A DNA stretch of 64,000 nucleotides, taken from assembly GCF_900078545.1 (NCBI RefSeq), contig NZ_FLLS01000002.1, positions 434,001-498,000 of the forward strand, read 5' to 3'. The notes beneath the pieces were generated by a model that was not told the origin of the DNA, made no database searches, and saw only the letters and a program-made list of their open reading frames with translations. Source of the stretch: Olegusella massiliensis. Its GTDB lineage: Bacteria; Actinomycetota; Coriobacteriia; Coriobacteriales; Atopobiaceae. How positions within the stretch are numbered: the first letter of the stretch is position 1; every line of letters begins with the position of its first letter. The position numbers were made by a program, and so were the translations under genes. Positions 32,750 through 36,690 of the stretch are shown here, one piece after another.

Positions 32750-32849
32750 CCGCTGTCCTGCTTTACCGCATGGCATTGTTGCTTTGCTGCGTTTTGTGTT
32801 TGTCCTGCCGTGTTAGCGAGCTTTGGCATCGTATTTTGTACCTTTATCG

Positions 32850-32892
32850 AGCCTCTGTGGGTATTTCAGCAAATGCTGCCCCCACAGAGGCT
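32850..32892 (+). terminator. Hairpin downstream of the M16C gene
   Basis: Perfect 12-base inverted repeat AGCCTCTGTGGG / CCCACAGAGGCT with an inner CAGCA-AA-TGCTG hairpin (32867-32878). Followed by CTCTCTGT rather than a T-run. It separates the peptidase gene from the leader of the next operon. Confidence 0.65.
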
Positions 32893-32917
32893 CTCTCTGT
32901 CATAAAATTAACCTGTA

Positions 32918-33002
32918 TGAGCCACCTGTAAGGGGGCATTTGGCTCAGGTCTCGACGGTTTTTAGCGAGACACAGACGGGATGTCGGGTTTTGCTCGGCA
33001 TC
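32918..33002 (+). promoter_or_regulatory. Structured 5' leader of the NifU-like/GGGtGRT operon
   Basis: Three consecutive hairpins end 9 bases before the Shine-Dalgarno: TGAGCCA/TGGCTCA (32918-32924 with 32941-32947), GTCTCG/CGAGAC (32949-32954 with 32966-32971), and a 9-pair stem GATGTCGGG/CTCGGCATC (32980-32988 with 32994-33002, G-U pairs included). It matches no riboswitch class I can recall. Probably regulatory or an mRNA-stabilising leader. Confidence 0.5.
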
Positions 33003-33026
33003 GTCGGCGTTGGAGAGGAGTGCTAT

Positions 33027-33719
33027 ATGCAGTATTCAGCGGACGTGGAGAGGATGTGCCCTGTTGCCAAGGGTGCATACCATGGTCCTGCCCCAATTCC
33101 TGAGGAGGGAAAGTGGGTTCAGGCCAAGAAAATTGAGGATATCTCTGGCTATACGCACGGTGTTGGTTGGTGTGCACCCCAGCAGGGTGCTTGCAAGCTC
33201 TCGCTTAATGTCAAGGCGGGCGTTATTGAAGAATGTCTACTCGAGACCGTCGGCTGCTCAGGCATGACCCATTCTGCTGCTATGGCTGCCGAAATTCTTC
33301 CCAAGAAGACTATTCTTGAGGCTCTCAACACCGACCTTGTCTGCGACGCTATCAACGTTGCTATGCGCGAGCTTTTCTTGCAGATTGTCTATGGTCGTAC
33401 TCAGACTGCTTTCTCCGAGGATGGTCTGCCTATCGGCGCTGGCATCGACGATCTTGGCAAAGGCCTGCGCTCCATGGTGGGTACCACTTATGGCACCGCA
33501 GCCAAGGGTCCCCGTTATCTTGAGCTGACCCAGGGTTATATCACCCACATCGCCCTCAACGAGAAGGACGAGATCATCGGCTTTGAGTTCGTCAACCTCG
33601 GCAAGTTCATGGATGACGTCAAGGCTGGCACCGATGCAAACGAGGCGCTCGAAAAGGCAAAGGGCCGCTATGGTCAGTGGGACGCGCCCGCCAAGGTCAT
33701 CGACCCCCGTGCCGAGTAA
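33027..33719 (+). CDS. NifU-like iron-sulfur cluster scaffold protein (GGGtGRT partner)
   Basis: 230 residues from ATG at 33027 with GGAGAGGAG at ideal spacing; the frame is open for 68 more codons upstream, but that overlaps the leader hairpins and is not protein-like. The region GACKLSLNVKAGVIEECL plus ETVGCSGMTHSAAMAAEIL matches the NifU/IscU fold, with Cys at 49, 56, 70, 77 and 106 available for cluster assembly; C11 lies in the conserved-looking MCPVAKGAYH start. It is longer than IscU, with a C-terminal extension ending in KAKGRYGQWDAPAK. Always seen by me next to GGGtGRT proteins; target of the assembled cluster unknown. Strong codon bias suggests high expression. Confidence 0.85.
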   Translation: MQYSADVERMCPVAKGAYHGPAPIPEEGKWVQAKKIEDISGYTHGVGWCAPQQGACKLSLNVKAGVIEECLLETVGCSGMTHSAAMAAEILPKKTILEALNTDLVCDAINVAMRELFLQIVYGRTQTAFSEDGLPIGAGIDDLGKGLRSMVGTTYGTAAKGPRYLELTQGYITHIALNEKDEIIGFEFVNLGKFMDDVKAGTDANEALEKAKGRYGQWDAPAKVIDPRAE

Positions 33720-33747
33720 CTTGGGGAAAGAAAAGGAGGCACGTCTT

Positions 33748-34749
33748 ATGGCAGTCACATTTGAAGGTTACGAGCGCCGCATCGCAAAGATTACCAAGGT
33801 GCTCGATAGTTATGGTATTTCCAGTCTCGAAGAGGCTGAAAAAATTTGTCTGGACAAGGGCATCGATGCTCGCAAAATTATCTTTGATGTTCAGTCAATC
33901 GCATTTGAAAACGCCGCATGGGCATACGTTGCAGGCTGCGCAATCGCAATCAAGAAGGGTTGCACAACCGCATCTGATGCAGCTGCCGCTATTGGTGAAG
34001 GCCTGCAGGCATTCTGCGTTCCTGGCTCTGTAGCAGAAGATCGTAAGGTTGGTTTGGGCCACGGCAACCTCGGAGCTATGCTTTTGGGCGAGGATACCGA
34101 GTGCTTTGCATTCCTCGCAGGTCATGAGTCTTTTGCTGCTGCTGAGGGCGCCATCGGCATCGCAAACAACGCCAACAAGGCCCGCAAGAAGCCGCTGCGC
34201 GTTATCCTCAACGGCCTTGGCAAGGACGCCGCACAGATTATCGCTCGCATTAACGGCTTTACCTATGTTCAGACCCAGTTTGATTACTTCACCGGTGAGC
34301 TGACCGTGGTCGAGACCACCAAGTACTCCGATGGTCCTCGCGCTGCTGTTAATTGCTACGGTGCTGACGACGTCCGTGAGGGTGTCGCTATCATGTGGCA
34401 TGAAAACGTTGATATTTCGATTACCGGCAATTCCACCAATCCTACTCGCTTCCAGCACCCCGTCGCAGGCACCTATTTTAAGGAGCGCGTCCTTGCTGGC
34501 AAGAAGTACTTCTCTGTTGCATCTGGTGGCGGCACGGGTCGTACCCTGCATCCCGACAACATGGGTGCAGGTCCTGCTTCCTATGGCATGACCGACACCA
34601 TGGGTCGCATGCACTCATCGGCACAATTTGCTGGCTCGAGCTCCGTACCCGCCCACGTTGACATGATGGGCCTTATCGGCATGGGCAACAATCCCATGGT
34701 TGGCGCTACCGTCGCGTGCGCTGTCGCCGTTGAGCAGGCTATGGCGTAA
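33748..34749 (+). CDS. GGGtGRT protein
   Basis: 333 residues from ATG at 33748, with AAAGGAGG eight bases upstream, 28 bases behind the NifU-like gene. Named for its motif, present here as GGGTGRT at 260-266 within FSVASGGGTGRTLHPD. Other conserved-looking blocks: AYVAGCAIAIKKGC (56-72), VGLGHGNLGAMLLGEDTECF (101-120), NGLGKDAAQIIARINGF and a C-terminal AHVDMMGLIGMGNNPMVGA. The family is common in anaerobes and uncharacterised; the partner suggests iron-sulfur cluster chemistry. A strong terminator follows, so the two genes form a complete operon. Confidence 0.93.
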   Translation: MAVTFEGYERRIAKITKVLDSYGISSLEEAEKICLDKGIDARKIIFDVQSIAFENAAWAYVAGCAIAIKKGCTTASDAAAAIGEGLQAFCVPGSVAEDRKVGLGHGNLGAMLLGEDTECFAFLAGHESFAAAEGAIGIANNANKARKKPLRVILNGLGKDAAQIIARINGFTYVQTQFDYFTGELTVVETTKYSDGPRAAVNCYGADDVREGVAIMWHENVDISITGNSTNPTRFQHPVAGTYFKERVLAGKKYFSVASGGGTGRTLHPDNMGAGPASYGMTDTMGRMHSSAQFAGSSSVPAHVDMMGLIGMGNNPMVGATVACAVAVEQAMA

Positions 34750-34802: not shown

Positions 34803-34835
34803 CCCTCGCAGGCAAATGCCTGCGAGGGCATTTTG
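34803..34835 (+). terminator. Rho-independent terminator of the GGGtGRT operon
   Basis: Perfect 12-base stem CCCTCGCAGGCA / TGCCTGCGAGGG (34803-34814 with 34817-34828), 2-base apparent loop, followed by CATTTTGT. Confidence 0.85.
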
Positions 34836-34918: not shown

Positions 34919-35137
34919 TTAACCGTGGGTGTATTTTGTAGCAGCGTGGAGCATGTTGATCTCACGTAGTTCAAGTTTTCCTTCGATATAGGGTTTATAC
35001 ATCGCTTCAACCGAGCCAACACCCATCGAACAGCCACTACAATTTTCGCAAGAGCTATCGTCACAAAATGACAAGCCTCGCGCCACGATGGCCCTGCGCT
35101 CCTCGGGAGTCGTATCCTTAATCAGCACACTTTTCAT
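34919..35137 (-). CDS. Small Cys-rich conserved protein
   Basis: 72 residues, AAGGGGGATTG Shine-Dalgarno before ATG at 35137. A Cys cluster CDDSSCENCSGCSMG (residues 25-39) with four Cys could bind a metal or cluster, followed by MYKPYIEGKLELREINMLH. I recall this type of protein as a widely conserved family in Firmicutes and anaerobic Actinobacteria without an experimentally known role. It begins 23 bases after the DUF262 stop and may be co-transcribed with it. Confidence 0.75.
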   Translation of the reverse strand: MKSVLIKDTTPEERRAIVARGLSFCDDSSCENCSGCSMGVGSVEAMYKPYIEGKLELREINMLHAATKYTHG

Positions 35138-35160: not shown

Positions 35161-36690
35161 TTAAAGACTTCGCCGATAGATTGCGCGTGTCGCCTCACTT
35201 AGCTGAGGATATACCCAGCGCACAGGCGCCTTATCCCCCGCCTGCAAAGCCAAACCGATTGCTGTTGTCGCATCCCAATCATCCGCCTTACGCAACGCAA
35301 GCGCACGGCAAAACTCATCATCAGCAGGAAAGCGCAGAGAGCTACTCTCTTCATTAAGTAGGTAGCTGGCATAAGCCACGACAAAGTCGCCACCAACCGC
35401 GCGCACACCTTCAAGACGAGCAATCAACTGCGAAAAGAATTTTTTCATACCTTCTGACGAACAATTACAGACAAGGCGCCTCATCAAATACGACTCCGTG
35501 ATACGCAAAGACTTCTCAAACACTGCGGCGTCAATATCCTGCTGATCGTAGGCGTCGTGGAAAAACAGCAGCAAAGGGTTAACTTCCGCTTGATCAAGCT
35601 TGCGCAAATCCGTTAATGCAGCATCAATTTCAGGTCGCGGATCGCAGTCTTCCATTACCTGTCCTTGGGTGATGTGCACATAAGAGCGCACGGTGCGACG
35701 CAGTTGATTAATCAGAGTGATAATGGCATTGCCGCTGCTATATCCCCCGTCACGTACATAGCGTTTGAACGCGGCATAGATATCTGAGCGCTCAAATGTT
35801 TGAGGGGCACAGCTAGCAGTTAGCCAATCGTGCAAGAAGTTCTCAAAAAGTTTTGCGTCATTATCCGTATCGAGTGACTGCTCAATCGGTTGCCAAAAAC
35901 TGCGATAAAGCGATTCTTGACTCTCAATCGGAGCTGACATCAAAATAAAGTTGCGCACAAGATCGGCCGATGACAAATCTTTACCCGTAGAGTTCATCGA
36001 CTCAAACACCAGCTGCGGATTGTCCTGACCTTCGGTGAGTGCAATAGATGCTACCTGTAGCTGCTGAATTCCCAGCCAGATACTATTGATATCCACATGT
36101 TCTAGCTGACGCTCAAAATAAGCAAGATTTTCCAACAGATGATGGGAACCCTGAGCACTTATCGCCTTATGAGCTTCAGGAGCACTGTCACTCTCAAGAG
36201 CGTCAATTAAAGCTTGGAACAACTCACGGTCGCCTTTGGAAAGCGTCAACTTGTAGTGATCGTGACCATCACGATGTTTGTTGGTGAGATAGCCATCATC
36301 CAAGATTTCTTGAGCAGAAAAGCTTAAGGAAGCAGAGCGCTCGGGATGGCGATGCGCATAACGTGCCAGAGCCACAAACACCAGCATCAAGGTGGTGACT
36401 CGCTGCTGGCCATCAATGAGCAGCCGCGACTCGACACCCGAGGTGGAAACTGCCCCATCCTGCACCCATACAATTGAACCCGTAAAGTGGCTTGGCGACA
36501 TCAGAGTGCGTCCACCATATTCACTACGAAGCCGCACGTCTTTTGCCGTGCGTCCTACGGTCACTATATCGTCCCAAAGCTGTGCACACTCGCGTAGCCC
36601 CCACGTATACGGCCGCTGATATACCGGCACAACAAAACGCAGATTAACAGGGGTAACGAGCCCGACAATAGTCGCGGTATCCGCATGCAT
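35161..36690 (-). CDS. DUF262 (GmrS-like) protein without a nuclease domain
   Basis: 509 residues, ATG at 36690 with AAGGAAG upstream. The N-terminal domain carries the DUF262/ParB-like motifs VPVYQRPYTW (21-30) and LLIDGQQRVTTLML (about 90-103), and FESMNSTGKDLSSADLVRNF. In GmrSD-type IV restriction systems this domain binds and hydrolyses nucleotides, and a C-terminal DUF1524 His-Asn-His nuclease (often on the same chain) cuts modified DNA. Here the last 150 residues show no HxxP or other nuclease motif and the next gene is unrelated. Role is therefore unclear: a defence protein with a separate nuclease, or a derived form. Confidence 0.8.
   Translation of the reverse strand: MHADTATIVGLVTPVNLRFVVPVYQRPYTWGLRECAQLWDDIVTVGRTAKDVRLRSEYGGRTLMSPSHFTGSIVWVQDGAVSTSGVESRLLIDGQQRVTTLMLVFVALARYAHRHPERSASLSFSAQEILDDGYLTNKHRDGHDHYKLTLSKGDRELFQALIDALESDSAPEAHKAISAQGSHHLLENLAYFERQLEHVDINSIWLGIQQLQVASIALTEGQDNPQLVFESMNSTGKDLSSADLVRNFILMSAPIESQESLYRSFWQPIEQSLDTDNDAKLFENFLHDWLTASCAPQTFERSDIYAAFKRYVRDGGYSSGNAIITLINQLRRTVRSYVHITQGQVMEDCDPRPEIDAALTDLRKLDQAEVNPLLLFFHDAYDQQDIDAAVFEKSLRITESYLMRRLVCNCSSEGMKKFFSQLIARLEGVRAVGGDFVVAYASYLLNEESSSLRFPADDEFCRALALRKADDWDATTAIGLALQAGDKAPVRWVYPQLSEATRAIYRRSL

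What the first reader, a model, noticed from the sequence alone, without database searches (positions are those of the whole stretch)
33027..34749. Uncharacterised NifU-like plus GGGtGRT operon
A modified NifU-type scaffold with at least six Cys is paired with the GGGtGRT protein, with strong ribosome sites and its own terminator. The role of the pair is undescribed; the combination suggests a dedicated cluster assembly or delivery unit in anaerobes.
Basis: partly seen in the sequence, partly recalled or inferred. Interest (0 to 1): 0.75.

Follow-up and report, generated by a model that had tools for sequence, protein, structure and literature searches.

The report
Iron-linked NifU-like/GGGtGRT protein pair
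Two neighbouring genes, a reshaped iron-sulfur scaffold protein and a protein of unknown function called GGGtGRT, are inherited together in many gut anaerobes and made when iron is plentiful, so they probably form one abundant iron-sulfur complex whose job is still unknown.

Summary
In detail: a 230-aa NifU-like gene (33027-33719) and a 333-aa GGGtGRT gene (33748-34749) form a two-gene unit. The pairing is close to absolute: 86 of 86 loci; in 424 genomes 105 of 107 GGGtGRT carriers have the NifU-like gene, the two exceptions lie at contig ends, and none has it alone. Published data show both up with iron in C. pasteurianum and down 11-13-fold without it in B. thetaiotaomicron. The NifU-like N-terminal part has the IscU fold and conserved Cys, but 70 of 70 members lack the CGD Asp, the HC His and the LPPVK chaperone site (SufU lacks the last two as well). 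SUF genes lie elsewhere in the genome. I favour a permanent cluster-holding subunit of a two-protein complex over a delivery unit (0.37); iron binding is untested. GGGtGRT models as a helical plus Rossmann-like protein without a clear solved relative. By the way: the 3' end of the GGGtGRT gene is a recurrent landing site for elements with integrases, defence and toxin genes (copies downstream in 10 of 65 loci against 11 of 821 control gene ends).

The parts
32849..32893 (+). 13-bp perfect inverted repeat after the upstream peptidase gene (terminator-like boundary)
   Evidence: sequence
32903..32908 (+). TAAAAT, a -10-like hexamer recurring at a similar distance in many related leaders (inferred promoter)
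   Evidence: by eye; the sigma-70 scan did not report it
33012..33020 (+). ribosome binding site GGAGAGGAG of the NifU-like gene
   Evidence: AGAGGAG kept in 23 of 23 aligned leaders
33027..33719 (+). NifU-like gene: IscU-fold domain (residues about 38-128; Cys 49, 56, 77, 106) plus a C-terminal alpha/beta domain (about 150-230) of unassigned fold
33733..33739 (+). ribosome binding site AAGGAGG of the GGGtGRT gene
33748..34749 (+). GGGtGRT gene (PF14057): helical N-terminal part (1-113) and Rossmann-like part (114-330)
34525..34545 (+). codons of the signature GGGTGRT (residues 260-266), in a loop after a strand, low model confidence
34600..34749 (+). 3' end of the GGGtGRT gene: attachment-site-like stretch in relatives; no second copy here
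   Evidence: last 39 bases found once in the window with up to 3 mismatches
34803..34828 (+). terminator-like hairpin (11 pairs, 9 G-C) after the operon

Best explanation
The two genes encode the two subunits of one abundant cytosolic iron-sulfur complex. The NifU-like protein is an IscU-fold protein turned from a transient scaffold into a permanent cluster-holding subunit: it keeps the cluster-pocket cysteines but has lost parts that scaffolds use to release clusters. GGGtGRT, with its Rossmann-like domain and near-invariant loops (GHGN, GHES, NGLGKD, TGNSTNPTRFQH, SGGGTGRTLHPDN, GRMH, SVPAHV), is the catalytic or substrate-binding subunit and may complete the cluster site with its one invariant Cys (119) and invariant His. 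The complex is made when iron is plentiful and dropped when iron is scarce; its cluster would be loaded by the host's general SUF or ISC machinery. Shown: strict linkage, IscU fold (predicted), Cys conservation, loss of CGD, HC and LPPVK, published iron response. Inferred: cluster binding, complex formation, catalytic role. The reaction is unknown.
For: Linkage: 86 of 86 loci; 105 of 107 carriers in 424 genomes, the two exceptions at contig ends. IscU fold over residues 38-128: Foldseek best hit IscU E 9.9e-4; the first 19 rows of the structural second look are all IscU/ISCU/NifU, Z 5.7-6.2. Cys 49, 77, 106 in 70 of 70, 56 in 69 of 70. CGD, LPPVK-like and HCS each 0 of 70, against 6 of 6 in canonical relatives that I picked from strong PF01592 matches. 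Replacing that Asp stabilises clusters in Azotobacter IscU and fission yeast Isu1 (PMC3789972, passage); LPPVK is the Hsp70 site linked to release (PMC6205161, passage). Iron response: BT0173-74 down 11-12.8-fold, a ferritin and a rubrerythrin gene 2.7-3-fold (PMC10434189, passages); in C. pasteurianum with iron, early phase, GGGtGRT 7.1-fold and the NifU-like 2.4- and 3.7-fold higher (PMC5395762, section 11). The canonical isc NifU of C. difficile rises in low iron (PMC6311696, passages). Abundance: codon bias rank 1 (GGGtGRT) and 6 (NifU-like) of 46 mechanically chosen window ORFs; high expression in the chicken caecum (PMC11204068, passages). SUF genes (B, D, S, U seen) lie apart at G000 C2, about 1355370-1359925.
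Against: I found no measurement of iron, cluster or complex. IscU Z scores of 5.7-6.2 lie in the range the tool calls common, and Foldseek's superpositions are loose (TMq about 0.3); the fold claim rests on agreement with the sequence profiles. GGGtGRT has only one invariant Cys. It has no close solved relative, so 'enzyme' rests on its conservation alone, and the signature loop is the least certain part of the model (pLDDT under 50 at 261-277). D39A favours the disordered state in human ISCU. The C. difficile contrast is across species, and in its fur mutant the isc NifU transcript falls (log2 -2.97). Abundance and iron response fit a store as well. The neighbour clustering gave no hint of a reaction.
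Confidence: 0.37

Rival explanations
1. Client-specific delivery unit: the NifU-like protein builds or carries a cluster and passes it to GGGtGRT or to other oxygen-sensitive enzymes.
Against: CGD, HC and LPPVK absent in 70 of 70; relatives of SufD, SufS or SufU found beside the pair in only 3 of 86 loci, within the DNA held (chaperone genes were not searched); abundance seems more than a catalytic carrier needs; iron response opposite to a canonical isc NifU in another species.
Confidence: 0.2
2. Iron or iron-sulfur store: the pair buffers iron (and sulfide) in the reduced cytoplasm of anaerobes, working like ferritin or the archaeal IssA thioferrate particle without being related to them.
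For: Abundant, higher with iron, falls more than a ferritin gene when iron is removed; six invariant His and several invariant Asp and Glu in GGGtGRT; an iron-sulfur store exists in an anaerobe (IssA, PMC5524996, abstract).
Against: The very high invariance of GGGtGRT (mean column identity 81% over 62 rows) looks like an active site rather than a mineral surface; no ferritin or IssA-type Pfam family in the window pair or in the relatives scanned.
Confidence: 0.2
3. Sulfur or zinc chemistry: the NifU-like protein is a SufU-like sulfur-transfer protein and GGGtGRT a sulfur-handling enzyme; iron only regulates them.
For: SufU has the same fold class and, like this family, no LPPVK and no HC (2 of 2); Cys 49 and 56 sit close together in one loop.
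Against: SufU keeps CGD (2 of 2), this family does not (0 of 70); SufS relatives beside the pair in only 3 of 86 loci; expression tracks iron; a SufU is already present in the own genome.
Confidence: 0.15

Closest known systems
IscU / NifU N-terminal domain (PF01592), the Fe-S scaffold
   Same: Best structural matches over residues 38-128; GC motif with Cys 77 aligned to the second scaffold Cys; Cys 106 at the head of the last helix; Cys 49 and 56 in the first loop.
   Different: No CGD, no HCS, no LPPVK-like motif in 70 of 70 members; second to third Cys 29 instead of 44 residues apart (window protein against the first canonical row); extra C-terminal domain; below the Pfam and NCBIfam cut-offs.
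GGGtGRT family PF14057
   Same: Full-length member, 630.9 bits.
   Different: Nothing distinctive in this copy. No function and no solved relative by sequence in the searches made.
SufU (zinc-dependent sulfur transfer, SUF system)
   Same: Same fold class; also without LPPVK and HC.
   Different: SufU has CGD; the own genome's SufU is a separate 144-aa protein among suf genes.
IssA / ferritin iron stores
   Same: Iron-linked expression and high abundance (analogy only).
   Different: No sequence kinship in the Pfam scans.

Membership tests
GGGtGRT (PF14057) | score above the curated cut-off over the whole profile | tested here: met
   630.9 bits against 27, profile 1-327
GGGtGRT (PF14057) | signature GGGtGRT | tested here: met
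   residues 260-266 GGGTGRT, invariant over the 66 rows of A3
IscU/NifU_N scaffold (PF01592) | score above Pfam or NCBIfam cut-off | tested here: not met
   15.5 against 22 bits; NifU_clost 19.6 against 187.9. Several relatives in other genomes reach 22-27 bits
IscU/NifU_N scaffold (PF01592) | IscU fold | tested here: met
   Foldseek IscU first, E 9.9e-4; first 19 rows of the second look all IscU/ISCU/NifU, Z 5.7-6.2; predicted model, with sequence support
IscU/NifU_N scaffold (PF01592) | three cluster cysteines | tested here: inconclusive
   Cys 77 aligns exactly; Cys 106 by position before the last helix; the first ligand may be Cys 49 or Cys 56. All are conserved, binding untested
IscU/NifU_N scaffold (PF01592) | CGD and HC motifs | tested here: not met
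   CGD 0 of 70, HCS 0 of 70, against 6 of 6 each in canonical relatives; SufU has CGD but no HCS (2 of 2)
IscU/NifU_N scaffold (PF01592) | LPPVK-type chaperone site | tested here: not met
   0 of 70 against 6 of 6; absent in SufU too (2 of 2)
IscU/NifU_N scaffold (PF01592) | assembles and transfers Fe-S clusters | not testable with these tools
   needs biochemistry
Iron stores (ferritin, IssA) | ferritin or IssA-type domain | tested here: not met
   no such Pfam family in the window pair, nor among the families listed for 70 and 62 relatives
Tubulin/FtsZ superfamily | tubulin fold with GGGTG(T/S)G loop | tested here: inconclusive
   tubulin Z 8.7, FtsZ Z 8.2 among many unrelated Rossmann-type rows of similar Z; the motif likeness is recalled

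The most novel reading that the evidence does not exclude
An IscU scaffold fold has been recruited as a permanent cluster-bearing subunit of an abundant, previously unrecognised two-protein iron-sulfur enzyme found in anaerobes of eight phyla, and it has been booked in databases and metaproteomes as a nitrogen-fixation protein.
Probability: 0.31. Interest if true: 0.8.

Novelty: new variant of a known kind. Interest (0 to 1): 0.6.

Why it matters
GGGtGRT occurs in 35 of 60 Coriobacteriales, 54 of 118 Clostridia and 18 of 99 Bacteroidales genomes sampled, responds to iron and is abundant in gut and rumen proteomes, yet has no known function. [quoted passage not shown] In three gut Bacteroidales genomes checked with PF01592, the pair's protein is the only match (G060, G068) or there is none at E 0.001 (G062), so that reading is probably a naming artefact (inference). 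A cluster test on the purified pair is simple and could give a function to a protein present in much of the gut flora. Separately, the 3' end of the gene is a widely used landing site for integrative elements with defence genes; none of the passages on GGGtGRT that I read in nine papers mentions this.

Tried and rejected
Rfam on the whole window (0 matches) and loosely on the leader (four matches, all below their gathering scores): no known riboswitch. Leaders of relatives fold into hairpins before the ribosome site (25 folded), but an alignment of 15 gave no consensus pair, so no RNA element is claimed.

Phage carriage: six 'phage' records matched GGGtGRT. I fetched four and read three (L171-L173): they hold chromosomal housekeeping genes, judged by eye from ORF starts, so I rejected phage carriage; L170 was not read and two records were not fetched.

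Distant homologue: one Pseudomonadota genome gave a 19.9-bit match, below the cut-off. The region is a threonine synthase by eye; taken as chance. A likeness of GGGTGRT to the tubulin/FtsZ glycine loop was considered; the structural scores are generic.

Neighbourhood: the clustering let antisense ORFs win in GC-rich loci (inferred), so pairing was counted with tblastn instead. Besides those and the pair, its largest group was an ABC ATPase type (by eye) in 13 of 86 loci. The small Cys-rich gene next door (34919-35137) is not beside the pair in the relatives whose places I could compare, except perhaps G001, where both genes lie at contig ends. Viral-contig scan with the NifU-like protein: no relative.

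Oxygen: in 148 Bacteroidota genomes COX1 occurs in 140 and GGGtGRT only in the seed genome, which lacks COX1. This is confounded by phylogeny, so I use it only as a bias.

Full report
OBSERVATION. The NifU-like gene runs 33027-33719 (230 aa) and GGGtGRT 33748-34749 (333 aa), 28 bases apart on the + strand, each with a strong ribosome site. A perfect 13-bp inverted repeat follows the upstream gene (32849-32893; the gene is an M16-type peptidase by eye) and an 11-pair hairpin follows the operon (34803-34828), so the pair looks like its own transcription unit. The scan found no more terminator-like sites than shuffles (2 against 2.7), so the terminator is plausible rather than proven.

WHAT THE PROTEINS ARE. 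GGGtGRT is a full PF14057 member. No relative with a solved structure was found by sequence. The NifU-like protein is a distant IscU/NifU relative: under the Pfam cut-off on its own, but supported by the family (70 of 70 members hit NifU_N at E up to 0.1; PDB NifU E 5e-5), by profile-profile comparison with six canonical proteins (E 6e-8), and by the model. The AlphaFold2 model (pLDDT 78.5) matches IscU over residues 38-128: Foldseek puts IscU first (E 9.9e-4, TMq 0.31), and the first 19 rows of the VIA second look are all IscU, ISCU or NifU (Z 5.7-6.2, a range the tool calls common). A well-modelled C-terminal domain (about 150-230, pLDDT blocks 84-95) was barely tested by these searches.

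A MODIFIED SCAFFOLD. Over 70 relatives Cys 49, 77, 106 and His 19, 44, 82 are invariant and Cys 56 is kept in 69. Six canonical scaffolds, picked from strong PF01592 matches, carry CGD, HCS and an LPPVK-type motif in 6 of 6; the NifU-like family carries none of these in 70 of 70, and its second-to-third Cys distance is 29 instead of 44 residues. Replacing the Asp of CGD stabilises clusters in Azotobacter IscU and fission yeast Isu1, though in human ISCU it favours disorder (PMC3789972, passages). LPPVK is the Hsp70 site linked to release (PMC6205161, passages). Against this: two SufU proteins, including the own genome's, keep CGD but lack LPPVK and HC, so those two losses alone do not exclude a transfer role. 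The host has suf genes elsewhere (SufD, S, U by tblastn; SufB and an Rrf2-type regulator by eye; SufC lies outside the stretch fetched, if present).

LINKAGE. All 80, and 6 of 6 plasmid-collection loci, have the NifU-like gene upstream on the same strand (86 of 86; 84 with aligned ends within 400 bases). The 30 loci do too. The plasmid collection gives the same 10 records for both proteins. By genome: order of the window (Coriobacteriales by likeness to named loci) 35 GGGtGRT and 34 NifU-like of 60; Clostridia 54 and 54 of 118, identical sets; Bacteroidales 18 and 17 of 99; wider Bacteroidota 1 and 1 of 148, the seed genome, also in the Bacteroidales set. Counting the seed once: 424 genomes, 107 with GGGtGRT, 105 with both, none with the NifU-like alone. 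I counted as NifU-like only matches over 60 bits; the 19-32-bit matches look like ordinary SufU/IscU. Both exceptions (G011, G356) lie at a contig end. One counted Bacteroidales genome, G423, has broken copies of both. In Pseudomonadota 9 of 299 genomes carry GGGtGRT over the cut-off; six of the nine were examined and all six have the NifU-like gene adjacent (five, the seed as L051). Named hosts fall in eight NCBI phyla: Actinomycetota, Bacteroidota, Bacillota, Pseudomonadota, Lentisphaerota, Thermodesulfobacteriota, Verrucomicrobiota and Spirochaetota (Treponema; phylum recalled). Pairwise distances of the two proteins correlate at r 0.745 over 79 loci, 0 of 1000 permutations reaching it, which shared ancestry alone would also give.

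IRON AND ABUNDANCE. In B. thetaiotaomicron BT0173-74 fall 11-12.8-fold under dipyridyl; a ferritin and a rubrerythrin gene fall 2.7-3-fold (PMC10434189, passages). In C. pasteurianum GGGtGRT is 7.1-fold (early) and 2.2-fold (late), and the NifU-like 2.4- and 3.7-fold (early, two spots) and 1.6- and 2.9-fold (late), higher with iron (PMC5395762, section 11). In C. difficile the canonical isc NifU rises at low iron (log2 0.83 transcript, 3.83 protein), the opposite direction, though in another species, and its transcript falls in a fur mutant (PMC6311696, passages). GGGtGRT is highly expressed in the chicken caecum (PMC11204068, passages). A GGGtGRT and a NifU-N-terminal protein are both reported lower in two human gut metaproteomes (PMC12014591, with neighbouring locus tags; PMC13041051; passages). 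Among 46 mechanically chosen window ORFs GGGtGRT has the lowest effective codon number (40.4) and the NifU-like ranks sixth (45.0).

GGGtGRT STRUCTURE. The model is good overall (pLDDT 84.5, pTM 0.84): a helical part 1-113 and a Rossmann-like part 114-330. The signature loop 261-277 is under pLDDT 50. Foldseek finds nothing with E under 0.001; the second look gives tubulin, FtsZ, glycosyltransferase, epimerase and dehydrogenase rows at Z 6.9-8.7, about what the tool's note calls typical without a true match, and it barely tested residues 1-113. Only Cys 119 is invariant among Cys, with six invariant His.

MECHANISM. I commit to a permanent two-protein iron-sulfur complex (0.37; 0.40 before the SufU check). 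The cysteines are kept, CGD and the release site are gone, both proteins look abundant, are always together and are higher when iron is rich. Steps shown: linkage, predicted fold, residue pattern, published iron response. Steps inferred: cluster, complex, catalysis. A store (0.20) and a delivery unit (0.20) remain open, sulfur chemistry too (0.15, raised from 0.12).

A LANDING SITE. Searches showed extra matches to only the last 28-56 positions of GGGtGRT: downstream of the intact gene on the same strand in six genomes (G060, G061, G234, G235, G319, G333) and on another contig in a seventh (G313). Of 65 named loci with at least 1500 bases downstream, 10 hold a second copy of the gene's last 27-150 bases, 8 of them running to the stop codon. 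Gene 5' ends gave 0 of 65, and 3' ends of other ORFs 11 of 821 (Fisher p 4e-7; loci are related, so the p value is optimistic). In the six genomes with a downstream copy, three intervals begin with a tyrosine integrase right after the gene (G060, G235, G234); in the other three I saw none by eye, with only some ORFs scanned. Cargo in these and other loci includes a bSEFIR protein, a type III restriction pair, a GajB-like helicase, AAA_14/DUF4143 proteins, an RNase-type toxin with barstar, a nucleotidyltransferase/HepT-like pair and prophage tail genes. The window copy has no such repeat.

LIMITS. Of the nine papers that name GGGtGRT I read passages, and for PMC5395762 one section; no supplement was read. 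One of them (PMC9942572) lists the protein in a bit-score comparison of putative factors in Clostridium innocuum, not as expression. No bench data on either protein's chemistry turned up in the searches made. The plasmid and genome collections are samples; the 80 loci are the closest to a mainly coriobacterial query.

Noticed in passing
GGGtGRT 3' ends: L163/L164 (Bacteroides fluxus), L165, L166, L073, L083, L094, L099, L114 and others: The 3' end of the GGGtGRT gene is a recurrent integration site: displaced copies of its last 27-178 bases lie about 0.1-24 kb downstream, in three cases with a tyrosine integrase directly after the gene, with defence, toxin or prophage cargo.
   Followed up: partly
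window 34919-35137, - strand: 72-aa Cys-rich protein just over the cut-off for the NuoF 4Fe-4S region (PF10589, 25.8 against 23.5 bits); matches in 15 of 40 relatives, not seen beside the pair there except perhaps in G001, where both lie at contig ends.
   Followed up: partly
window 35161-36690, - strand: Solitary GmrSD N-terminal (DUF262-type) protein, PADLOC Orf5 E 1e-88: probable defence gene a few hundred bases downstream of the operon.
   Followed up: no
leaders of the pair in Coriobacteriales, window about 32909-33011: Sequence-diverse leaders of about 60-125 bases tend to fold into a hairpin shortly before the ribosome site (by eye); no consensus structure was obtained.
   Followed up: partly
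L036, L039, L041 (Collinsella): The pair lies a few kb after sufD-sufS-sufU in these three of 86 loci.
   Followed up: partly
PMC6043501: A rumen metaproteome lists 'nitrogen-fixing protein NifU' among its most abundant families and speaks of nitrogen fixing proteins; it is probably this pair's NifU-like protein (inference).
   Followed up: partly
L032, 4791-4982 +: In Parabacteroides distasonis a 63-aa hypothetical gene sits between the two genes, and TlpA and OsmC genes lie upstream.
   Followed up: no
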